Source: Deltaproteobacteria bacterium RBG_13_61_14
GTDB taxonomy: Bacteria; RBG-13-61-14
Assembly (NCBI GenBank): GCA_001797815.1
Contig: MGQK01000109.1
Location: 10,599 to 33,518, forward strand
Reading direction: 5' to 3'
Length of the DNA: 22,920 nt
The position numbers were made by a program, and so were the translations under genes. Shown here in pieces: positions 2,938 through 20,212 of the stretch (the stretch's first letter is position 1; each line of letters opens with the position of its first letter). The notes below the pieces were generated by a model. That model was not told the origin of the DNA. It ran no database searches and saw only the letters and a list, made by a program, of their open reading frames with translations.

Positions 2938-4389
2938 ATGAAAGTTGGAACAAAAATTATATCAAGGCAGCAGTTGAGGTATCTTGAAAGAATACAAGAG
3001 GGAAGGTATTCTTCACCTGAGATAGTTGATATTCTACTGAAAATAGTTGATGACGATGACATCCTAGAGGACAGGGAAGAGCTACATCCTGGATGGATTG
3101 AGATATTCGAAAATAATATAGACTCCATAAAGAAGATTCAACCACCAATAATATGGGAAAAGATCAATTCATTCTTTGATAAAGTTGTTTCATTAGATTC
3201 TAACATAAAGGATATAGACCCAAAATCTACAACTATGTCTTTTCTTCTTGGAGCGGGAGCATCAAACCCGGATCCTTCAAACATCCCTACTGTCAAACAA
3301 CTTCTTCCTCAGTTACTCGAACGCGGTCGACGTCTCGATAGAGATGACGTCACAAGATTGGCTGACTTCTGCGATTCTCGGAAAATAGATAATATTGAAG
3401 ATCTGCTAACGGCTGCTCAATTAGCAACTTTTTCTAGCCGTAATCCGACGATACTGAAACTTATGAATTTTTTGCTGTATCGAGAGGATATAGAAGGGCC
3501 TTATGAAGAACCCCGTTACTATCGTCCCTGGGAAGCTGAAAGACTTGAAATGAGGAGGATTAGAAAATTTAGGGAACCCGGTGCAGAACTTTCATCAGTC
3601 GCTTTTCTTCAAGATACTTTGCAAGTTCTTTTCGGCCTGCTATCAAGTACTATGCTTCCAGCAAAGCCCAATAATGCACATAAATCAATTGCAGAGTACG
3701 CTAAATCCCATGTGAGATCTTCGATTGTGACCACCAATTACGACTGCTGTATGGATCTGGCTTTAGGAGAAGTACATAAAGATTTCTTTTATCAAGTGGA
3801 TTTCTCTAATGTTTCTAAGCCGCAGCCTATTTCTGATAAAACTATATTGATTAAGTTACACGGTAGTTTAAACTGGTTTTACTGTGAAACCTGCCAAGAG
3901 ATTCAGCTTGTTAATATAGAACAAATGGTAGATTCTTTTCAAAATGATAGATGTCCATATCCTGTCATTGGAATCTGTAGGGATTGCGGCGGACAGAGAA
4001 GAGGCTTACAAGTTCCTCCACTTGCAATGAAATTCGATTTGGGACCTCCTTTAACCCGATTGATGAGCGAGGCCACGATATCCTTTGAAAAGGCTCAACT
4101 AATCGTAGTTGTTGGATTTTCATTCGCTGAAGCAGACATTTATATATCGCGCATGTTGAGCAAATCGATGCAGAGCTCTCCTAATCAAAAGCTATTAATT
4201 GTTGATCCTGATTATAATGTGGTAGATAGAGTTCGTAGAAAATTCAAAGCTAGCATTCCGAATTTCGATGCTACCCGTATAATTAAGTTAGCAGGAAACT
4301 GCAGCGATATTCTTCCTAGATTCCTTAGTGGAGAATTTCTAAAAGTAGCATCTGAGCCAATAAACAAAGAGTCTGCCTCAGAAGAGTAG
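2938..4389 (+). CDS. SIR2-like NAD-binding domain protein with zinc ribbon, candidate defence effector
   Basis: 483 residues. The SIR2 motifs are clear: FLLGAGAS (102-109, NAD-binding glycine-rich loop), TTNYD (265-269), KLHGS (306-310, His308 in the catalytic-base position) and GFSFAEAD (393-400). A zinc ribbon is inserted after the KLHGS motif: CxxC at 316/319 and CxxC at 347/350. About 95 N-terminal residues are helical and unassigned, and there is no transmembrane segment. Stand-alone SIR2-like proteins of this divergent class often deplete NAD+ in anti-phage systems; others are deacetylases. The first role is inferred here from domain type and setting. The gene is much more AT-rich than its neighbours, has AGGAG at 2923-2927 (10 nt from the ATG), and is bracketed by inverted repeats with no partner gene inside. 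These are signs of lateral acquisition. Confidence 0.88.
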   Translation: MKVGTKIISRQQLRYLERIQEGRYSSPEIVDILLKIVDDDDILEDREELHPGWIEIFENNIDSIKKIQPPIIWEKINSFFDKVVSLDSNIKDIDPKSTTMSFLLGAGASNPDPSNIPTVKQLLPQLLERGRRLDRDDVTRLADFCDSRKIDNIEDLLTAAQLATFSSRNPTILKLMNFLLYREDIEGPYEEPRYYRPWEAERLEMRRIRKFREPGAELSSVAFLQDTLQVLFGLLSSTMLPAKPNNAHKSIAEYAKSHVRSSIVTTNYDCCMDLALGEVHKDFFYQVDFSNVSKPQPISDKTILIKLHGSLNWFYCETCQEIQLVNIEQMVDSFQNDRCPYPVIGICRDCGGQRRGLQVPPLAMKFDLGPPLTRLMSEATISFEKAQLIVVVGFSFAEADIYISRMLSKSMQSSPNQKLLIVDPDYNVVDRVRRKFKASIPNFDATRIIKLAGNCSDILPRFLSGEFLKVASEPINKESASEE

Positions 4390-11695: not shown

Positions 11696-13159
11696 ATGGC
11701 GAAAGATAGTTGGAAAACCAAGAGTCTTTCCGTGGCCAACCTCCATTTGGATGAGAAGAACCCGCGTCTCGGCCGAGAAACCGTATCGCGATCACCCCGC
11801 GAGATCATCCAATATCTCTTCGAGCATGATAAGGCGTTAGAGGTAGCCGAAAGCATTGTCACTCGTGGCTATTTCCCAAATGAGCCGCTTCTAGCGATTA
11901 GGGAAAATGGTCGGCACGTGGTCGTTGAGGGCAATCGTCGACTCGCAGCTCTGAAGGCACTACGCGAGCCCGGGTTACTGGATGGTTCGTTAAGGCGTCA
12001 GGTTGAACGCCTTTCTCGGCGGATCTCTGACCCACAAGCGATTGCGAAGGTTCCAGTCACTATCGCTCCAAGTCGAAAAGCAACTGACCGTCTGCTTGCG
12101 GGCCGGCATATAGGTACTCCCGTTCTCGCATGGCAGACTGAGAATCGAGCAAGCTTTATTCTCCAAAAGCTAGCGGAAGGTTATGACAATGCTGAGCTGC
12201 AGAACAATCTCGGCTTTACGATGGCAGACATTCAACAGGCCATGCAGACAAGAGCCATCGGGGATATGGCGCGTTCACTAGATCTTCCCGACGAAGTGAA
12301 AGCCAAACTAAATAACCCCAGAGCCAAAATATTCACAACGCTAGAACGTGTTTTTGATTCCTCCGTGGGACGCGATTATCTCAAGGTTGAAACCGACCCT
12401 GAACATGGACTTCGTGGCACAACAACGAAGAGTGAGTTCGTGCGCGGCTTTAAGAAGCTTGTAAACGACGTTGCACTCGGGATACAATCTTCGCGGACGC
12501 TGAACACTAATGACAATATCCGAGCTTATTTCGAATCATGGGATCCCAAAGAACGACCTGAGAATAAGCCTGGGTCATTTATCCCTTCGGATATCATTGA
12601 GGGCAAGTCTGTTGTGTCGTTAGGCCATAAACAGGTGCCTGCGAAGATCCCTCGGAAATCGAAGCAGGAAATTAAGACAGTTTTGCCGCGTGATTTCAAA
12701 GTCAGGTTCGGCAATGACCGACTCGTCGATATCCGCCGCGAGTTGACCAAGCTTAAACGTGAAGACTTTCCAAACGCTGGTGCAGTCTTGCTTCGGGTGT
12801 TCTTCGAGCTATCAGTCATCAACTACCTTGAGCGCACTGGCGAACTTACTGGTATTATTGAAAAGATAAAGCAAAAGGGGGTGAATCTTCCCCACGGCAT
12901 GCCGACGATGAAACAACTCCAGCGGGAGATTGTGCGGATCGCAAAACAGCGCTTGCCTCGACCTCAGGCAATTAGAGTTGAAAAGGCGATCACGTATAAT
13001 CCTGCTGCCCCATTTACGATCAGCGATCTTCATGGGTTCGTGCATTCATCAGATTTGCCCACTGAACGGGATATCTTGCAATTTTGGTTGCGCACGGAAC
13101 CCCTTTTTCGGCTGATGCTGGAACAGGACTCTGGGATGCAAGTGAATGAAAACCCCTAG
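11696..13159 (+). CDS. ParB-like N-terminal domain protein with HEPN-like C-terminal region
   Basis: 487 residues. Residues about 10-95 form a ParB/Srx-like domain: SVANLHLDEKNPRL, then SIVTRGYFPNEPLLAI and the signature VVVEGNRRLAALKAL (EGNRR at 78-82, equivalent to GERR in ParB). ParB-like folds bind nucleotides, and some have nuclease activity. The middle is helical and basic. The last 130 residues contain AGAVLLRVFFELSVINYLE and HGFVH (446-450), followed by PTERDILQFW and an aromatic helix. This looks like the C-terminal HEPN-like regions of conflict proteins, an inference from pattern only. The gene overlaps the methyltransferase by 14 nt, so the two probably act together, for example as a modification-linked defence or DNA-maintenance pair. 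Composition is less GC-rich than the flanking genes. It is not a chromosome-partitioning ParB: no helix-turn-helix region typical of Spo0J is evident and no ParA is nearby. Confidence 0.8.
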   Translation: MAKDSWKTKSLSVANLHLDEKNPRLGRETVSRSPREIIQYLFEHDKALEVAESIVTRGYFPNEPLLAIRENGRHVVVEGNRRLAALKALREPGLLDGSLRRQVERLSRRISDPQAIAKVPVTIAPSRKATDRLLAGRHIGTPVLAWQTENRASFILQKLAEGYDNAELQNNLGFTMADIQQAMQTRAIGDMARSLDLPDEVKAKLNNPRAKIFTTLERVFDSSVGRDYLKVETDPEHGLRGTTTKSEFVRGFKKLVNDVALGIQSSRTLNTNDNIRAYFESWDPKERPENKPGSFIPSDIIEGKSVVSLGHKQVPAKIPRKSKQEIKTVLPRDFKVRFGNDRLVDIRRELTKLKREDFPNAGAVLLRVFFELSVINYLERTGELTGIIEKIKQKGVNLPHGMPTMKQLQREIVRIAKQRLPRPQAIRVEKAITYNPAAPFTISDLHGFVHSSDLPTERDILQFWLRTEPLFRLMLEQDSGMQVNENP

Positions 13160-14003
13160 TCCCCTTAGATATCCCGGCGGTAAATCGGCGATGGCGGGCT
13201 TGCTAAGCCATATCCGAAGAATAAATGGGCTTGGATATCGAGCAATCGCCGAGCCCTTTGCTGGGGGGGCAGGCGCGTCACTCACGTTGCTGTATCTAGA
13301 AGAAACCCACGAGATATATATCAACGATGCGGACCCCGCGATTTATGACTTTTGGTGGAGCCTCGTCAACCGGCCCCAGACGTTTATGGACATGCTCTCA
13401 AAAGCGCGTGTGAGCATGGCTGAGTGGCATCGTCAACGAGAGGTGTATAGAGATTGCGGTCGCGTATCTCGCCTCCGTAGGGGTTTCTCAGCATTCTATA
13501 TGAATCGATGCAATAGGTCCGGGATCATAGTAAATGGCGGTCCCATTGGGGGGACAAAACAAATAGGCAAATGGAAGCTCAATGCCAGGTTCAATAAAGC
13601 TGAGCTTAGGCGCCGGTGCGAGAAGGTAGCCGAATACCGTAATCGAGTTCACGTGTCTGGTTGTGACGGGATAGAGTTAATTAAGAGCTTAGATGCAGAG
13701 TCAACCTTCTTCTTCATTGACCCACCGTACTTCGTCAAAGGGAAAACGCTCTATCTGAGCGCCTTGGATGATGAATACCACATCGCTCTTTCGGCTCAAA
13801 TGAAGTCTATGTCCGATTCTGCTTGGGTGTTGGTTTACGACGATTGCCCCGAGATCCGTCGATTGTATCGGGATTGGGCGACTATCAGACCATTCTCGCT
13901 ACGTTACGTCGCAGCAGAGCGGAGGAGCGGGAAGGAATTACTTATCATCCCGAAGTGGATGCGCCTGCCTTCGTCCCAAGATTCCGCCGCCGTCTCTTGG
14001 TGA
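13146..14003 (+). CDS. D12-class DNA adenine N6-methyltransferase (Dam-like)
   Basis: Transfers methyl from S-adenosylmethionine to N6 of adenine in a specific DNA site. The 285 residues carry the alpha-class order: LRYPGGKS (7-14, SAM-region motif X), EPFAGGAGAS (36-45, motif I), an INDADPAIYDFW motif II region, FYMNRCNRSGI (conserved in D12 enzymes) and FIDPPYF with the catalytic DPPY at 192-195 (motif IV). It appears complete. No restriction endonuclease is recognisable nearby; the ParB-like protein overlapping its start is the only partner. Specificity is unknown: Dam relatives often modify GATC, but that cannot be read from this sequence. A GGAGTCAGGTC motif follows about 33 nt after the stop. 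Confidence 0.9.
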   Translation: MKTPSPLRYPGGKSAMAGLLSHIRRINGLGYRAIAEPFAGGAGASLTLLYLEETHEIYINDADPAIYDFWWSLVNRPQTFMDMLSKARVSMAEWHRQREVYRDCGRVSRLRRGFSAFYMNRCNRSGIIVNGGPIGGTKQIGKWKLNARFNKAELRRRCEKVAEYRNRVHVSGCDGIELIKSLDAESTFFFIDPPYFVKGKTLYLSALDDEYHIALSAQMKSMSDSAWVLVYDDCPEIRRLYRDWATIRPFSLRYVAAERRSGKELLIIPKWMRLPSSQDSAAVSW

Positions 14004-14812
14004 GCTATTAATACTTTTACAACACAACAAAGATTGGAGTCAGGTCTTGACATTTGACATTAGAAGCAGTGGACAGGGAAAGAAGAGGCATTAGACATTA
14101 GGCTTTGGGCTTTAGGCTTCAGAAAAAGAAAATCTGCGTAATCTGTCCTCGACCCCGAGCGCTCGGACCGAGGGGCGTAATCTGTGGATCGCTCTTTTCT
14201 TAGCGGTTGACAGACAGGAATGTCTGTCCCCCTGCCAGATTCCCTGACACCCTGCCACCATGACACCCTGACACCTTCAAGCAGTGGACAGTGAACAGTG
14301 CACGGACTTCGGCGAGCTCAGTCGAGCCGTGCACAGTGCTTGGAGTAGGGGTCCCCAGGCGGAAAACCTGGGGTGGTTGCCGCGTTAGATGGGGTGGTTG
14401 CTGAGCAGAATGGGGTGGCTGCTGGGCAGGATGGGGTGGTTGGCGTGCAGAATGGGGGGACGTTTGAAGAGGGTATATCGTATGTCGTATGTAGTAGGTC
14501 GGGGAAGAGAAGAGGAAGAAACCCGGAGAAATTTTGCCAGGTTAAGTGAATCGGCCCGGTTCCGGGGAGGCCGGAAAGAAGGATGATAGGGTTCGGAAGG
14601 GCCGGGGCCGGGAATGGGGGTGCATCTTGGGGGCACTGGGACAAAAAGGCATAGAGAAATTGCCAGGTTAGCGTCTCGAACAATCGTTCTATTTCAGCCT
14701 TCATCCTTCAGCCTTTATCCTTGATTCTTCATCATCCCCTATTAGTGTAAGAATGTTGCAGTTTTTGAGGAATTATGTAACATTTAGCCATTGCTTTTCG
14801 CTTGGAAGAAAA
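14004..14812. repeat. Repeat mosaic after the methyltransferase
   Basis: About 800 bases with no supported gene. In order: GGAGTCAGGTC (14036-14046); the 'gaggcattag...gctttgggctttaggc' unit (14085-14118); an 'aatctgcg' unit (14127-14190) split by a palindrome centred on CGAGCGCTCG (14155-14164); the 'aggaatgtctgtccccctgcc' unit (14209-14241); a 'gtggacagtgaacagtgcac' unit (from about 14283) split by a REP-like palindrome (about 14304-14328); a CCCCAGG/CCTGGGG hairpin (14353-14373); a 21-bp tandem array (14368-14451); and a 'tatatcgtatgtcgtatgta' unit (14472-14494). A weak promoter-like pair TTGCAG/TAACAT (14756-14783) precedes the next frame. Confidence 0.7.
14368..14451 (+). repeat. Four tandem 21-bp repeats
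   Basis: Units start at 14368, 14389, 14410 and 14431, each beginning (a/c)tggggtgg(t/c)tg, with a partial fifth unit (atgggggg) at 14452. The period is a multiple of three, so an open frame runs through on the minus strand, but codon content there looks random. Confidence 0.85.
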
Positions 14813-15251
14813 ATGAAGTGTAATTCCTTTTTGCTTTCCCTGGGTTCCGGGCGCTGGATTCTCGCGGTTATCTTGGCCGCGCTTGGAATTCAAGCCCGGG
14901 CCGGTGAAGCGCCGGCGCCGCGGGATCAACTTCCCCAGGACGAGGCCGGGATCGCCAAGATGATGAAGGTGACCTGGTCGCAGGAGGTCCTGCCGGCCCG
15001 ATCAGATCCGCTGGATGATCCCCCGGGCGGCGGGGGACGCGCCCGGCTTTTGGCGCTTCATCCCGCTCGAGGGAGGCAAGAGCTGCCTGATCTTCAACGG
15101 CGCCACCGCCGACATCCGGGCCATGGGCTGGATTCCCCGCTATGCGCTCAAGGTCGAGCCGACGTTGGAACACGCCCTGATCGGAAGCCAGGGCGCCATC
15201 GCCATCAACGCCAGCAAGGACCACATCCAGCGCCTGACTGCCGGCAAGTGA
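14813..15251 (+). pseudogene. Exported START/SRPBCC-like protein, frameshifted and probably internally deleted
   Basis: ATG at 14813 (GGAAG upstream) begins a clear signal peptide: MKCNSFLL, a hydrophobic core WILAVILAALGI and an ARAGEAP cleavage region. The mature part reads sensibly to about VTWSQEVLPA (near 14996). After that this frame turns into arginine/proline/histidine-rich shadow sequence, while a different frame becomes protein-like from about 15003: QIRWMIPRAAGDAPGFW, CLIFNGATADIR, ALKVEPTLEHALIG, ending at 15251. The joined product would be about 145 residues, shorter than usual START-like proteins of about 200, with the middle missing. I read it as a decayed gene with a frameshift near 14990-15003. 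The family call is tentative. The alternative is an ORF to 15295 in the first frame. Confidence 0.5.
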
Positions 15252-15349
15252 TCAAATCTTCCAAAAAAGCTTTCGCATCGGCAATGAACTTTTAGGCCGG
15301 GGGAGTGTCGAACTAAGAAAACCAGCACTTTTCAGAAGGAGGTCCGGTC

Positions 15350-18300
15350 ATGAGACACCAGGCCGCGTTTGTCGGCGCTATCTCGGTTGTTCTTTTCGCT
15401 CTCGCCTTTCCCGTCTTTGCCCAATCCATCCAGGACGTTTACGTCTTCGCTCCCGCCGAATACGCGCCGGGCTCTTCCGGCTCGCTCCGGGTGGTGGTGA
15501 TGGAGGCCACCGGCTTGACCACTTCCACCCCGATCGAGAACGCGCGGGTGCGGCTCAAGCTGCAAGGGACCGGCCAATACCACGCGCTCGCCGACGCCCG
15601 CACCAACGCCCAGGGCACGGTGGACCTGAGCTTCAAGCTGCCCGAGGCCAAGCCCGGCGATTACACCTTGGAGGTGGAGGTCTCCTCCCGGCTGGGCAAG
15701 GTCACCCGGTCTCACCCGGTCTCGCTGGTCGCGCGTAACCGCATCCTGCTTTCCACGGACAAGCCCATCTACCAGCCCGGCCAGCTCATGCACCTGCGCG
15801 CGGTGGCGCTCCGCCAGGCCGACCTCAAGCCCATTGCCGGCGAGAAGCTGGTCTTTGAGGTCGAGGACTCCAAGGGCAACAAGGTCTTCAAGAAAAGCTT
15901 CCAGACCGACGCCTTTGGCATCGCCGCGGCCGATTTCGAGCTGGCCGACGAGATCAACCTGGGCGAATACCACGCCCGCGCCGTGCTGGGCGAGCTTACC
16001 GAAGAAAAGTCCATTAACGTCAGCCGCTACGTGTTGCCCAAGTTCAAGGTGGAGTTGGCGACGGAGCGGCCCTATTACCAGCCCGGCCAAAAGGTCAAGG
16101 GCACGCTCCAGGCCAACTACTTTTTCGGGAAGCCGGTGAGCGGAGGCAAAGTCGAGATCGCGGCCCAGGCCTTTGACGTCGAGTTCCACGATATTGCCAA
16201 GGTCTCGGGCCAGACCGATCCGGAGGGCAACTTCGAGTTCGAGTTCGACCTGCCCGCGAGCTTCGTGGGCCAGCCGCTCGAGCAGGGCGACGCCTTGGTG
16301 AAAATAGACGCCAAGGTTATTGATACCGCCCAGCATAGCGAGCAGGTCTCGGTCAGCAAAAAAGTCGCGGCCTCGGGCTTGCGCCTCGAGATCGTGCCCG
16401 AAGCCGGTCGCTTGATCCCGGGCGTGGAGAACGTGCTCTATGCGATCGCCACCACGCCCAATGACGAGCCGGCGGCCGCGGAGATAGCGATCACGATCGG
16501 AGATAAAAGCTTTCGCCTGAAAACCGACGCGACCGGAGTGGCCGAGCTCCGCTTCACACCCGCGGCCGGCCAGTTCAAGGAAGACCCGAACGCCCGTTAC
16601 CAGGGCCGGGATGCCGCGCCGTTCACCCTGGAGGTCAAGGCCAAGGCCGACGATAAACTCGGGAACTCGACCGAGATCAGCCGCACCCTTTCCGCGGACT
16701 CGGTGCGCGACACCGTGCTCCTGCGGCCGGACCAGGCAATCTACAAGGGCGGCGATTCCCTCGGCCTCACCGTTCTCTCCACCTTCTCCACCGGCACCGT
16801 GTTCCTCGACATCATCAAGAACGGCCAGACCCTGCTCACCCGCTCCCTCGAACTCAAGGCCGGCAAGGCCGAGACCCGGCTCGCGCTCGGCCCGGACGCC
16901 TGGGGCACGCTCGAAGTCCACGCCTACAAGATGCTCCCTTCCGGCGAGACCGTGCGCGACACCCGGGTGGTCTATGTCAGCCCGCCGGACGATTTGAAGG
17001 TTTCAGCTAATCTGAGCAAAGTAAACCATCGCCCGGGCGAGGAAGCTCTGATTAAATTCAAAGTTACCGATAAGCGCGGCGTCGGGCACGCGGCCGCGCT
17101 GGGGATTGTAATCGTGGACGAGAGCGTGTATGCGCTCCAGGAGCTCCAGCCGGGATTGTTGAAAGTCTATTTTACGCTGGAGAAGGAACTGGCCAAGCCG
17201 CGCTACGAGATTCATTATGCGCCCGGGGGCTGGGTGGTCGAGAACCTGATCCAGGAAGAAAAAATTGACGCGGCCCGCCAGAAGATGGCCAAAGTCCTCC
17301 TCGCCGGAGTGAAGAAGCCGACCACCTATGACTGGCAAGAGAACCCGGCCCAGGCGCGCATGGACCAGGAAATGGGAAAGCTTCAGAATCTTTATAGCGC
17401 ACTGTTTGAATATGGCCGCAGGAAAATGCTCGTGAGTTACCAGGCCGGCCGCTGGGCTTATCAGCCGGACCTGTTAGAAAAAATGATCGCGGCCAAAGCG
17501 ATTGAGCGGAGCCAGGTCACCGATGCCTGGGGAAAGATTTACAACCTGAACGAAATCGGCTCGATTGATCCTGACCTGGAATCCGCTTCTTTATGTAAAA
17601 GCCTGGCCAGCCAAAAACTCCAAAGTGTTTACCAGGCACTTTCCTCATATTGGTATGAGAACCGCTCCACCATCCAAAAACTTTTCAAGACGGGATCCAG
17701 CGAGGAATGGCAGTTTCCCGAGGGAGTTTTGGATAAGTTAGTCAGCGCGGGTCGGTTAAGCGCTGATGACCTTCGCGATCCCTGGGGCTACAAGATAATA
17801 TTCAAGTATCTCAACAAACCCAATGACCGAAGCTCCCTTGGCTATCAGTTCCGCTGGTATGACCTTCGCAGTGTAGGTCCGGATGGCAAGCCTGATACCA
17901 GTGATGATGTCACGGAACTGACCTGGTATGGGCAACATCTACGAAGAGGCGGCCGCGATTTCCTTGCCTGGGATGCCGCGGAGTTCGAAATGGCGCGGCC
18001 GCGAGCCATGGGCGGGGCGATGATGAAAGCTGAAGCGATGCCGATGATGGCCTCGGTCGCGGAAGACAAAGCCGGAGCCGGCCGGGAGGAGCGCAAGGCG
18101 AGCGTGCGGGTGCGCGAGTATTTTCCGGAGACGCTGCTCTGGATGCCGGCGCTGATCACCGACCGCTATGGTTATGCGGAATTAAAAGTGCCGCTGGCCG
18201 ACTCGATCACCACCTGGAGGCTCTCGGCCGCGGCCCATTCCCGGGACGGGCTTTTAGGCTCGGGCCAGAGCGGGATCAAGGTCTTCCAGGACTTTTTCGC

Positions 18301-20212
18301 GGACATTGACTTTCCGGTCTCGCTCACCTCGGGCGACGAGGTGAGCGTGCCGGTCGCGGTTTACAACTACCTGCCCGGAAGACAGACCATCGAGCTGGAG
18401 GTGGAAAAGGGAGACTGGTTCGACCTCTTGAGCGACCAAGTGCAGAAGCTCACGCTTGACGCGAACCAGGTGGACGTGCGCTTCTTCAGGATCAAGGTCA
18501 AGGGTCTCGGCCAGCAGACCCTCACGGTCTATGCGCTCGGCTCGAAGATGGACGACGCGGTCAAGCGGCAGGTGGAGGTGGTGCCCAACGGCAAGATGTT
18601 CGAGCTGGTGGCAAACGGCCAGTTGGCGAGCGAGATCAATCAGAACCTGACCATCCCGGCCGAGGCCATTCCCGGGGCGAGCAAGGTCCTGGTCAAGATT
18701 TATCCCGGCGTCTTCTCCCAGGTGGTCGAGGGCATGGACGGCATCTTCCGCATGCCCTCCGGCTGCTTCGAGCAGACCACCTCCACCACCTACCCCAACG
18801 TGATGGTGCTCAATTACCTGAAGCGCACCAAGCAGATCACGCCCGAGATCCAGATGAAGGCCGAGGGTTTCGTCAACCTGGGCTACCAGCGGCTGCTCAG
18901 CTTCGAGGTGCCGGGCGGCGGCTTCGAGTGGTTCGGAAGCCCGCCGGCGCACCTGGTGCTGACCGCTTACGGGCTGATGGAATTTTTTGACATGAGTCAG
19001 GTGGCGGAGGTGGACCCGGCCGTGATCCGCCGCACCCATGAGTTCCTGGCCGGCAAGCAGGAGAAGGACGGGAGCTGGAAGCCGGTGGAGCACTGGATCG
19101 AGACGCTTTCGGGCGAGGCCTTTTCCCGCTCGACCTTGCTCAATACCGCTTACATCGCCTGGGCGCTCTTGGACACCGGCTATCAGGGCGAGGCCGGGGA
19201 CAAGGCGATTGCTTATCTCAAGGCCAACGTCAAGGAGGCCAAGGACGCTTACACGCTGGCGCTGGCGGTGAACGCGCTCGCGGCCAAGAACCCGAAAGAC
19301 CGGGACACGCTCGCGCTCCTGGAGCAGATCCACAACGCCCGGATCGAGGACCGGCAGAATAAGACCGTGCACTGGGAGCCCCTGGGCGAGACCGCGGTGC
19401 ACGGCGGCGGAAAATCGGCGCAGATCGAGACCACCGCGCTCATCCTTTATGCATTCTTGAAGGCCGGGGTTTACCCGAACACGGTGAACCTTGGCCTGAA
19501 TTGGCTCGCCCAGCAAAAGGACAGCTTCGGCACGTTCGAGAGCACGCAAGCCACGGTGCTGACCTTCAAGACCCTGCTCCTGGCCGAGGCCGGCAAAGCG
19601 CCCGAGCTGAACGTGAGCGTGAGCGTGACCGTGAACGGGGACCGGCGCGAGGTCAAGATCACGCCGGAAGATTCCGACGTGCTCCGGCTCCTGGACTTCA
19701 AGGAAAAAACCCTCGCCGGCGACAACGCGGTGGGCCTGAAGCCATCGGCCGAGACCAACCTGATGTATCAGGCCGTGGCGCGCTTCTTCATCCCCTGGGA
19801 CAAGTTGCCCCGGGAGCAGGTGGAGGAGCCGCTCAAGCTGGAACTGACTTATGACCGCACTCAGCTCAAGGCGGACGATCTGCTGACCGCCCAGGTCAAG
19901 GCGACCTACCGCGGCACCCAGCCCACGGAGATGATCGTCTTGGACCTCGGCATCCCGCCCGGCTTTACCGTGCAGACCGAGGGTCTGGAGAAGGCCAAGG
20001 GCGAGGGCAAGATCGAGAAGTTCACCCTGACCGGCCGGCAGATCACGGTCTATGTGCGGCGGATCGAGCCGAAGAAGCCGCTGGAGCTGAGCTACCAGCT
20101 CAAGGCCAAATTCCCGGTCAAGGCCCAGACCCCCAAGAGCGCGGCCTACGAATACTACAACCCCAAGGTGCGGAGCGAAGTGAAGCCGGTGGAGCTGCGG
20201 GTTACGCAGTGA
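15350..20212 (+). CDS. Bacterial alpha-2-macroglobulin with thioester motif and an unusual insert in the bait region
   Basis: 1620 residues with a cleavable signal peptide (about 1-24, ending VFAQ) and no lipobox, so it is secreted or periplasmic. Macroglobulins trap proteases: cleavage of a bait region triggers collapse and covalent attachment through a Cys-Gln thioester. Order: repeated MG domains including MG2 (TDKPIYQPGQLMHLRAVAL, about 137-155), VDESVYAL (about 590-597), an insert at about 660-870, a Met/Ala-rich linker (about 880-915), the conserved REYFPETLLW segment, MG7, the thioester domain with PSGCFEQ (Cys1139, Gln1142) and a C-terminal receptor-binding-like domain. The insert holds two related segments with DAWG (725-728) and DPWG (810-813) and ends YDLRSVGPDGKPDTSDD (837-853), the signature of GspG-type pseudopilins. 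It is also less GC-rich than the rest. AGGAGGT lies 6 nt before the ATG. Confidence 0.94.
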   Translation: MRHQAAFVGAISVVLFALAFPVFAQSIQDVYVFAPAEYAPGSSGSLRVVVMEATGLTTSTPIENARVRLKLQGTGQYHALADARTNAQGTVDLSFKLPEAKPGDYTLEVEVSSRLGKVTRSHPVSLVARNRILLSTDKPIYQPGQLMHLRAVALRQADLKPIAGEKLVFEVEDSKGNKVFKKSFQTDAFGIAAADFELADEINLGEYHARAVLGELTEEKSINVSRYVLPKFKVELATERPYYQPGQKVKGTLQANYFFGKPVSGGKVEIAAQAFDVEFHDIAKVSGQTDPEGNFEFEFDLPASFVGQPLEQGDALVKIDAKVIDTAQHSEQVSVSKKVAASGLRLEIVPEAGRLIPGVENVLYAIATTPNDEPAAAEIAITIGDKSFRLKTDATGVAELRFTPAAGQFKEDPNARYQGRDAAPFTLEVKAKADDKLGNSTEISRTLSADSVRDTVLLRPDQAIYKGGDSLGLTVLSTFSTGTVFLDIIKNGQTLLTRSLELKAGKAETRLALGPDAWGTLEVHAYKMLPSGETVRDTRVVYVSPPDDLKVSANLSKVNHRPGEEALIKFKVTDKRGVGHAAALGIVIVDESVYALQELQPGLLKVYFTLEKELAKPRYEIHYAPGGWVVENLIQEEKIDAARQKMAKVLLAGVKKPTTYDWQENPAQARMDQEMGKLQNLYSALFEYGRRKMLVSYQAGRWAYQPDLLEKMIAAKAIERSQVTDAWGKIYNLNEIGSIDPDLESASLCKSLASQKLQSVYQALSSYWYENRSTIQKLFKTGSSEEWQFPEGVLDKLVSAGRLSADDLRDPWGYKIIFKYLNKPNDRSSLGYQFRWYDLRSVGPDGKPDTSDDVTELTWYGQHLRRGGRDFLAWDAAEFEMARPRAMGGAMMKAEAMPMMASVAEDKAGAGREERKASVRVREYFPETLLWMPALITDRYGYAELKVPLADSITTWRLSAAAHSRDGLLGSGQSGIKVFQDFFADIDFPVSLTSGDEVSVPVAVYNYLPGRQTIELEVEKGDWFDLLSDQVQKLTLDANQVDVRFFRIKVKGLGQQTLTVYALGSKMDDAVKRQVEVVPNGKMFELVANGQLASEINQNLTIPAEAIPGASKVLVKIYPGVFSQVVEGMDGIFRMPSGCFEQTTSTTYPNVMVLNYLKRTKQITPEIQMKAEGFVNLGYQRLLSFEVPGGGFEWFGSPPAHLVLTAYGLMEFFDMSQVAEVDPAVIRRTHEFLAGKQEKDGSWKPVEHWIETLSGEAFSRSTLLNTAYIAWALLDTGYQGEAGDKAIAYLKANVKEAKDAYTLALAVNALAAKNPKDRDTLALLEQIHNARIEDRQNKTVHWEPLGETAVHGGGKSAQIETTALILYAFLKAGVYPNTVNLGLNWLAQQKDSFGTFESTQATVLTFKTLLLAEAGKAPELNVSVSVTVNGDRREVKITPEDSDVLRLLDFKEKTLAGDNAVGLKPSAETNLMYQAVARFFIPWDKLPREQVEEPLKLELTYDRTQLKADDLLTAQVKATYRGTQPTEMIVLDLGIPPGFTVQTEGLEKAKGEGKIEKFTLTGRQITVYVRRIEPKKPLELSYQLKAKFPVKAQTPKSAAYEYYNPKVRSEVKPVELRVTQ

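What the first reader, a model, noticed from the sequence alone, without database searches (positions are those of the whole stretch)
17330..17950. Tandem pseudopilin-like (GspG) insert at the bait-region position of an alpha-2-macroglobulin
Residues about 660-870 lie between the MG domain with VDESVYAL and the REYFPETLLW segment, where the bait region is expected. The insert has two related units, each starting LQ-x-x-Y-x-A-L-x-x-Y (residues 678 and 757) and ending in D-A/P-W-G (725, 810). After the second comes YDLRSVGPDGKPDTSDD, which matches the calcium-binding C-terminal signature of type II secretion pseudopilin GspG. Base composition is lower in GC than the rest of the gene. A folded, duplicated, possibly Ca-binding bait would differ from the usual flexible bait; it could sense a particular protease or tie the trap to a secretion system.
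Basis: partly seen in the sequence, partly recalled or inferred. Interest (0 to 1): 0.68.

Follow-up and report, generated by a model that had tools for sequence, protein, structure and literature searches.

The report
Pseudopilin-like domain in bacterial macroglobulin bait
A bacterial relative of our blood protease-trap and complement proteins carries, in the slot where those proteins hold their trigger (bait) or the C3a fragment, a duplicated calcium-binding domain descended from a part of a bacterial secretion machine, and this turns out to be a widespread but apparently undescribed design across many bacterial phyla.

Summary
Window 15350-20212(+) encodes a 1620-aa thioester alpha-2-macroglobulin (A2M). 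Between the two halves of its bait-bearing MG domain lies a two-unit GspG (major type II secretion pseudopilin)-like insert, residues 655-872. Pfam T2SSG alone is sub-threshold in the window (18.0 bits; cut-off 21). But 25 of 59 homologous inserts hit T2SSG (best 3e-9), a profile of the inserts retrieves solved GspG/PulG chains (3e-7), and the top 11 Foldseek hits of an AlphaFold model of the insert (pLDDT 86) are all pseudopilins or type IV pilins. The calcium ligands of GspG are kept in unit 2; unit 1 is a degenerate copy without that loop. The module is not peculiar to this gene: 54 of 81 compared A2Ms from more than ten phyla carry it; 22 carry 5-7 hydrophobic helices instead. The flexible bait is not replaced; it follows the domain as a disordered Ala/Gly/Met/Pro-rich linker (873-918) leading to the conserved R-x-x-F trigger. 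I propose a calcium-clamped scaffold presenting the bait, at the site where C3/C4/C5 hold the anaphylatoxin. A link to secretion is not supported. In passing: 13 related A2M genes appear to encode selenocysteine at the thioester.

The parts
15350..20212 (+). A2M-family gene, 1620 aa, N-terminal signal peptide (MRHQAAFVGAISVVLFALAFPVFA)
   Evidence: hydrophobic N-terminus
16982..17134 (+). N-terminal half of the bait-bearing MG domain (residues 545-595), ending ..VDESVYA
   Evidence: VIA-align: this half plus the C-terminal half match the bait-bearing MG domain of A2ML1, ECAM and C5 at Z 13-14
17135..17311 (+). conserved strand and linker-like region (residues 596-654, LQELQPGLLKVYFTLEKELAKPRYEIH...), LNK-like
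   Evidence: P, G and F columns nearly invariant in 59 homologues
17312..17581 (+). unit 1, degenerate GspG-like repeat (residues 655-744): long helix, two short strands, DAWG; no calcium loop
   Evidence: HMM of single-unit homologues 16.5 bits; model helix and strands
17582..17965 (+). unit 2, complete GspG-like soluble domain (residues 745-872)
   Evidence: HMM best domain 47.4 bits; Pfam T2SSG 18.0 bits, below cut-off; VIA-align to GspG chains Z 5.3-7.1 over 84-99 residues
17873..17908 (+). GspG-type calcium loop V842-GPDGKPDTSD-D853; D845, T850, D853 correspond to the side-chain ligands D117, T122, D125 of 3G20
   Evidence: (columns for D845, D852, D853 at least 90% kept in 59 inserts), PMC3396595
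17966..18103 (+). flexible linker, proposed true bait (residues 873-918)
   Evidence: pLDDT <50 over model residues 330-374 = 874-918; Ala/Gly/Pro/Met enriched in 54 sequences
18104..18400 (+). C-terminal half of the bait-bearing MG domain and A2M domain, starting VRVREYFPETLLW; R922 and F925 invariant
   Evidence: PMC9156758
18710..19576 (+). thioester domain (TED), thioester motif GCFEQ at 18761-18775, codon for Cys1139 at 18764
19925..20173 (+). receptor-binding/C-terminal MG domain

Best explanation
A secreted bacterial alpha-2-macroglobulin protease trap (thioester type) whose bait segment has been enlarged by a GspG-derived, calcium-binding soluble domain, here in a two-unit form. The domain is inserted in the bait-bearing MG domain (MG6 in human numbering), at the site that holds the bare bait in A2M and the anaphylatoxin domain in C3/C4/C5. 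The domain, folded and clamped by a calcium ion in unit 2, acts as a rigid spacer or plug that is itself hard to cleave and presents the short disordered linker (873-918) as the main scissile bait. Cleavage in the linker frees the segment with R922..F925, which swings between MG6 and MG7; the trap closes and the thioester of TED (Cys1139/Gln1142) captures the protease. Shown by computation: gene and domain layout, bait position, GspG homology and predicted fold, conservation of the calcium residues, disordered linker, conservation of the trigger residues. Inferred: calcium binding, protease trapping, secretion, and the scaffold role. The identity part (GspG-derived domain in the bait slot) I hold at about 0.95; the scaffold role is much less certain, and the confidence given is for the whole.
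For: Domain layout. Bait position: AlphaFold model of residues 545-1000; its flanking halves together match the bait-bearing MG domain of A2ML1 (556-789), ECAM (857-1021) and C5 (544-815) at Z 13-14. GspG homology: T2SSG in 25 of 59 inserts, best 3.2e-9; the G037 homologue passes Pfam's cut-off, 24.8 bits; profile against PDB: 3g20 2.9e-7, 1t92 1.5e-5; the reverse also holds, as the insert HMM finds the genome's own GspG candidate at 1.7e-7; top fold hits all pseudopilins or type IV pilins. Calcium: D810, S841, G843, D845, D852, D853 at least 90% conserved while the mean column identity of the segment is 13%. Linker disordered and Ala/Gly/Pro/Met-rich in 54 sequences. Trigger residues R922/F925 invariant, matching the spacing of Arg730/Phe733 of A2ML1 (PMC9156758). 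Breadth: 54 of 81 A2Ms in more than ten phyla.
Against: Foldseek E-values are only 0.02-0.9 and VIA Z at most 7.1, so the fold match rests on the consistency of the hits and on the sequence profile. Nothing shows that the protein traps proteases, that calcium binds, or that the linker is what is cleaved. In 22 relatives the slot holds a membrane-type insert and in five the calcium motif is altered or missing, so a calcium-clamped scaffold cannot be a general need of the family. Blastocatellia inserts L037 and L102 lack the calcium motif.
Confidence: 0.6

Rival explanations
1. Passive or fast-evolving decoration: the GspG-like module has no specific role; it is a tolerated, swappable loop insertion whose sequence drifts or is exchanged in an arms race with proteases.
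For: The insert is a highly variable part of the protein (mean column identity 13%); the same slot holds unrelated modules in other lineages: 5-7 hydrophobic helices (22 of 81), an added carboxypeptidase-regulatory-like domain in Acidobacteriota; GC3 of the window insert is far below the rest of its gene, as expected of an exchanged segment, and its best matches are multi-unit inserts of Planctomycetota and one Myxococcota locus.
Against: The calcium residues and the D of DPWG are held nearly invariant across phyla, and the module is kept through most of the tree with as few as four changes between GspG-type and membrane-type.
Confidence: 0.22
2. Releasable effector, like the anaphylatoxin C3a: proteolysis frees the pseudopilin-like domain, which then signals, adheres or binds partners.
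For: Same insertion site as the anaphylatoxin domain of C3/C4/C5 (PMC9156758); folded and predicted to be calcium-stabilised.
Against: The obvious disordered linker lies on the C-terminal side, so a single cut leaves the domain on the N-terminal fragment; no poly-basic processing site is seen between residues 600 and 655 (sequence).
Confidence: 0.1
3. Docking or secretion element: the GspG-like domain binds the pseudopilus of a type II secretion system and so exports or positions the trap.
For: Homology to the major pseudopilin; the genome has a GspG candidate.
Against: Internal position, no class III signal, no hydrophobic helix (highest 19-residue hydropathy 0.83 in residues 621-900), which pseudopilins need to polymerise; ordinary N-terminal signal peptide.
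Confidence: 0.05
4. Not a pseudopilin: only a stray calcium-binding PERCAL loop (G-x-D-G-x-x-[GN]-[TN]-x-D-D) as in bacterial peroxidases, with the rest of the insert unrelated.
For: PERCAL loops occur outside pseudopilins (PMC3396595); the window's loop fits G-x-D-G-x(5)-D-D; T2SSG is sub-threshold in the window.
Against: Profile and fold matches cover the helix, DPWG turn and sheet as well as the loop.
Confidence: 0.03

Closest known systems
Thioester A2M family, e.g. human A2ML1 and A2M
   Same: MG domains, bait slot within the same MG domain, A2M domain starting with a YFPET motif, TED with Cys-x-Glu-Gln thioester, receptor-binding domain, R-x-x-F trigger
   Different: The bait slot holds a folded two-unit GspG-like insert before the flexible linker; thioester motif GCFEQ rather than Cys-Gly-Glu-Gln
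Complement C3/C4/C5
   Same: A folded domain sits in the same slot of MG6 (PMC9156758)
   Different: The domain is pseudopilin-like, not anaphylatoxin; no poly-basic processing site seen; no evidence of release
Bacterial A2M of the YfhM/ECAM/Salmonella type
   Same: Protease-trap architecture, bait in the corresponding MG domain (MG8 in ECAM)
   Different: ECAM has ten MG domains and a largely disordered bait (PMC4498604); this genome has a separate, longer A2M-like ORF of about 1855 aa that is only a distant match
GspG/PulG/EpsG/XcpT major pseudopilins of type II secretion
   Same: Soluble domain: long helix, DPWG turn, small sheet, calcium loop S-x-G-P-D-G-x-x-x-T-x-D-D
   Different: Lacks the prepilin leader and the hydrophobic half of the N-terminal helix; embedded in another protein; one of the two units degenerate
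PERCAL calcium motif of bacterial peroxidases (PMC3396595)
   Same: Same calcium-loop consensus, shared with pseudopilin 3G20
   Different: Here the loop sits in a whole pseudopilin-like domain; position 7 is D rather than G/N in the window

Membership tests
alpha-2-macroglobulin family (thioester type) | MG domains, A2M domain, TED and receptor-binding domain in order | tested here: met
   Pfam MG2, MG3, A2M_BRD, A2M, TED_complement, A2M_recep above cut-offs
alpha-2-macroglobulin family (thioester type) | Thioester motif with Cys and Gln three residues apart | tested here: met
   GCFEQ at residues 1138-1142; conserved in relatives as Cys, or as TGA in 13 genes
alpha-2-macroglobulin family (thioester type) | Bait insertion in the MG6-equivalent domain | tested here: met
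   Model halves match the bait-bearing MG domain of A2ML1, ECAM, C5 at Z 13-14
alpha-2-macroglobulin family (thioester type) | Protease-triggered covalent trapping | not testable with these tools
   Needs a biochemical assay
GspG major pseudopilin (T2SSG, PF08334) | Soluble GspG domain with helix, DPWG and C-terminal sheet | tested here: met
   Profile and fold matches; window alone below Pfam's cut-off
GspG major pseudopilin (T2SSG, PF08334) | Calcium loop | tested here: met
   Unit 2 only, by sequence: D845, T850, D853; binding itself not tested
GspG major pseudopilin (T2SSG, PF08334) | N-terminal prepilin (class III) leader and hydrophobic helix for assembly | tested here: not met
   Insert begins at about residue 655 of 1620; highest 19-residue hydropathy 0.83 in residues 621-900. 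So it is GspG-derived, not a pseudopilin
Complement C3/C4/C5 | Anaphylatoxin domain in MG6 | tested here: inconclusive
   The insert domain matches GspG chains by sequence and fold; anaphylatoxin was not listed, but absence from a hit list is not an exclusion
Complement C3/C4/C5 | Furin-type poly-basic processing site between the linker region and the inserted domain | tested here: not met
   No poly-basic run between residues 600 and 655 by inspection of the sequence

The most novel reading that the evidence does not exclude
A bacterial counterpart of the C3-C3a design that arose independently: a folded, calcium-clamped domain recruited from a secretion pseudopilin occupies the anaphylatoxin slot of an A2M and, when the trap is sprung, is exposed or released to act on its own (signal, adhesion or partner binding), while other lineages have filled the same slot with membrane helices.
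Probability: 0.1. Interest if true: 0.85.

Novelty: new variant of a known kind. Interest (0 to 1): 0.62.

Why it matters
The bait slot gives A2Ms and complement proteins their specificity and trigger. Finding that many bacterial phyla keep a pseudopilin-derived calcium domain there, and others a membrane-type insert, shows that the slot has been a modular insertion site in evolution and that a folded domain beside a short bait is not confined to complement. It makes testable how bait access is controlled and whether calcium gates a protease trap. No paper in the held library mentions macroglobulin together with pseudopilin or T2SSG; three papers that hold macroglobulin and the letters gspg are unrelated. 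That library lacks most subscription journals, so prior mention cannot be excluded.

Tried and rejected
Pfam and NCBIfam on the window alone gave only sub-threshold T2SSG/GspG, and phmmer of the window insert against PDB put chance capsid matches first; the family alignment was needed. Foldseek with the larger model returned mostly macroglobulin, complement and other beta-rich chains, so the insert was folded alone. Conserved gene neighbours: no cluster was shared by more than 8 loci, with mixed strands and sides, so no partner gene could be named. The 180-aa ORF upstream (14753-15295) has no Pfam match and its sequence suggests a short or frame-broken gene; not pursued. Minimum-energy folding of 45 bases after the TGA codons gave no difference between TGA and Cys genes; a direct search for a stem with a G-containing loop did, so that test was chosen after the first failed and should be repeated on new genes. 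The organism could not be named: its MetG is at most 58% identical to those of 36 named genomes tried.

Full report
What was checked. The gene at 15350-20212(+) encodes 1620 residues with a signal peptide and the full set of thioester-A2M domains. The quoted motifs are at the quoted residues. The finding's coordinates 17330-17950 correspond to residues 661-867.

Bait position. The A2M_BRD match ends at residue 596 and the A2M match begins at 928, so the segment 597-927 lies in the bait slot. An AlphaFold model of residues 545-1000 made with 47 sequences has its two flanking halves forming one MG domain; VIA-align matches that domain to the bait-bearing MG domain of human A2ML1 (556-789), E. 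coli A2M (857-1021) and complement C5 (544-815) at Z 13-14. In this family the linker and the bait form one insert in MG6, the bait being replaced in complement by the anaphylatoxin domain (PMC9156758); in E. coli A2M the equivalent is MG8 (PMC4498604).

Identity of the insert. In the window alone, T2SSG is below Pfam's cut-off (18.0 bits against 21). The best match among 60 whole genomes sampled (G037, a different lineage) has one unit, and there T2SSG passes (24.8 bits). A scan of named genomes gave 80 A2M loci. With a second gene in L047, the G037 homologue and the window, and leaving out sequences shorter than 1000 residues, 81 sequences were compared. Of these, 54 carry the GspG-type calcium signature in the slot, 22 carry several hydrophobic helices instead, and five carry a diverged form. 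T2SSG matches 25 of 59 of the non-membrane inserts at E <= 0.01, best 3.2e-9. A profile of these inserts against all PDB sequences retrieves EHEC GspG 3g20 (2.9e-7), PulG 1t92 (1.5e-5), XcpT 2kep (4.8e-5) and others. A model of the insert alone (residues 655-872) has mean pLDDT 85.9 and pTM 0.79; its top 11 Foldseek hits are all pseudopilins or type IV pilins, with modest E-values (0.02 to 0.9), and VIA-align gives the best GspG chains Z 5.3-7.1 over 84-99 residues, against 3.9 for the first unrelated chain.

Two units. An HMM from single-unit homologues only, tested on the window, finds unit 2 (best domain 47.4 bits) and unit 1 (16.5 bits alone). Unit 1 keeps the helix and DAWG but has no calcium loop. 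Multi-unit inserts also occur in Planctomycetota (L030, L031, L033, L034, L053) and one Myxococcota locus (L047), and these are the closest in sequence to the window's insert (54-76 bits, next best 31), partly because two units align.

Calcium. In 3G20 the ion is held by main-chain atoms of P114 and V119 and side chains of D117, T122 and D125 of PGPDGVPNTEDD (PMC3396595). The window has VGPDGKPDTSDD: D845, T850 and D853 are the counterparts. Across 59 inserts D810, S841, G843, D845, D852 and D853 are at least 90% kept while mean column identity is 13%. Binding is inferred, not shown.

The bait itself. Residues 874-918 have pLDDT under 50. In 54 sequences the segment after the calcium loop has a median of 53.5 residues and is enriched in Met (2.5x), Gly (2.0x), Ala (1.8x) and Pro (1.75x). 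The next residues, R922 and F925, are invariant and have the spacing of Arg730/Phe733 of A2ML1, which settle between MG6 and MG7 after cleavage and are proposed to start the conformational change (PMC9156758). I therefore place the scissile bait in the linker and treat the GspG-like domain as a scaffold in front of it. That role is inference.

Evolution. On a tree of the backbone without insert columns, GspG-type sequences are spread over the whole tree and membrane-type ones lie mainly in Chloroflexota, with at least four changes between the types (root not inferred, several deep branches weak). Acidobacteriota add a carboxypeptidase-regulatory-like domain after the GspG-like one. The window insert has GC3 0.596 against 0.866 in the rest of the gene, while 48 homologous inserts differ little from their flanks: local exchange or relaxed codon selection in this lineage, not settled.

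Secretion link. The genome has one other T2SSG match, over the whole length of the family, a GspG candidate on another contig. The insert lacks the leader and hydrophobic helix of pseudopilins. A tie to secretion has no support here.

Selenocysteine in relatives (outside the finding). In 13 A2M genes of 12 loci the reading frame is interrupted by TGA exactly at the thioester Cys codon; the window has Cys. A stem of at least six pairs with a G-containing loop just downstream is found in 8 of 13 TGA genes and in none of 66 Cys genes; an earlier plain energy test showed no difference. SelB is above cut-off in 11 of the 12 TGA genomes and tRNA-Sec scores at least 69 bits in 10 of 12; in 18 genomes with Cys-type genes the numbers are 11 (SelB) and 10 (tRNA-Sec at 67 bits or more). 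The codon state changes at least six times on the tree. Selenocysteine in place of the thioester cysteine would be a new chemistry for this family; the held library has no paper on it.

Verdict. It is a widespread variant of a known family.

Noticed in passing
L033, L047 (two genes), L053, L057, L069, L072, L074, L076, L082, L084, L088, L108: In-frame TGA exactly at the thioester Cys codon of 13 related A2M genes, never TAA/TAG; SECIS-like stem-loop in 8 of 13 and in 0 of 66 Cys genes; SelB in 11 of 12 and strong tRNA-Sec in 10 of 12 of these genomes: probable selenocysteine in place of the thioester cysteine.
   Followed up: partly
L060, L066, L068, L071, L073, L077, L081, L083, L085, L092, L094, L097, L100, L101 and others (22 of 81): The same bait slot holds five to seven hydrophobic helices, mainly in Chloroflexota; the two examples scanned have no Pfam match above cut-off.
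   Followed up: partly
L079, L091, L096, L099, L102, L104: Acidobacteriota A2Ms appear to add a carboxypeptidase-regulatory-like beta-sandwich in the bait slot after the GspG-like domain.
   Followed up: no
window 17312-17965: GC3 of the insert 0.596 against 0.866 in the rest of the gene; no other 218-codon window falls below 0.81. Suggests exchange of the module or relaxed codon selection.
   Followed up: partly
L047: Two A2M genes in tandem, both multi-unit in the insert and both TGA at the thioester.
   Followed up: no
window 14753-15295: 180-aa ORF 54 bases upstream of the A2M start, with an N-terminal hydrophobic stretch and a low-complexity tail, no Pfam match; may be a frame-broken gene.
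   Followed up: no
window 2938-4389 and 13146-14003: A 483-aa protein with a SIR2-like domain (SIR2_2) and, further on, a D12-class adenine methyltransferase gene.
   Followed up: no
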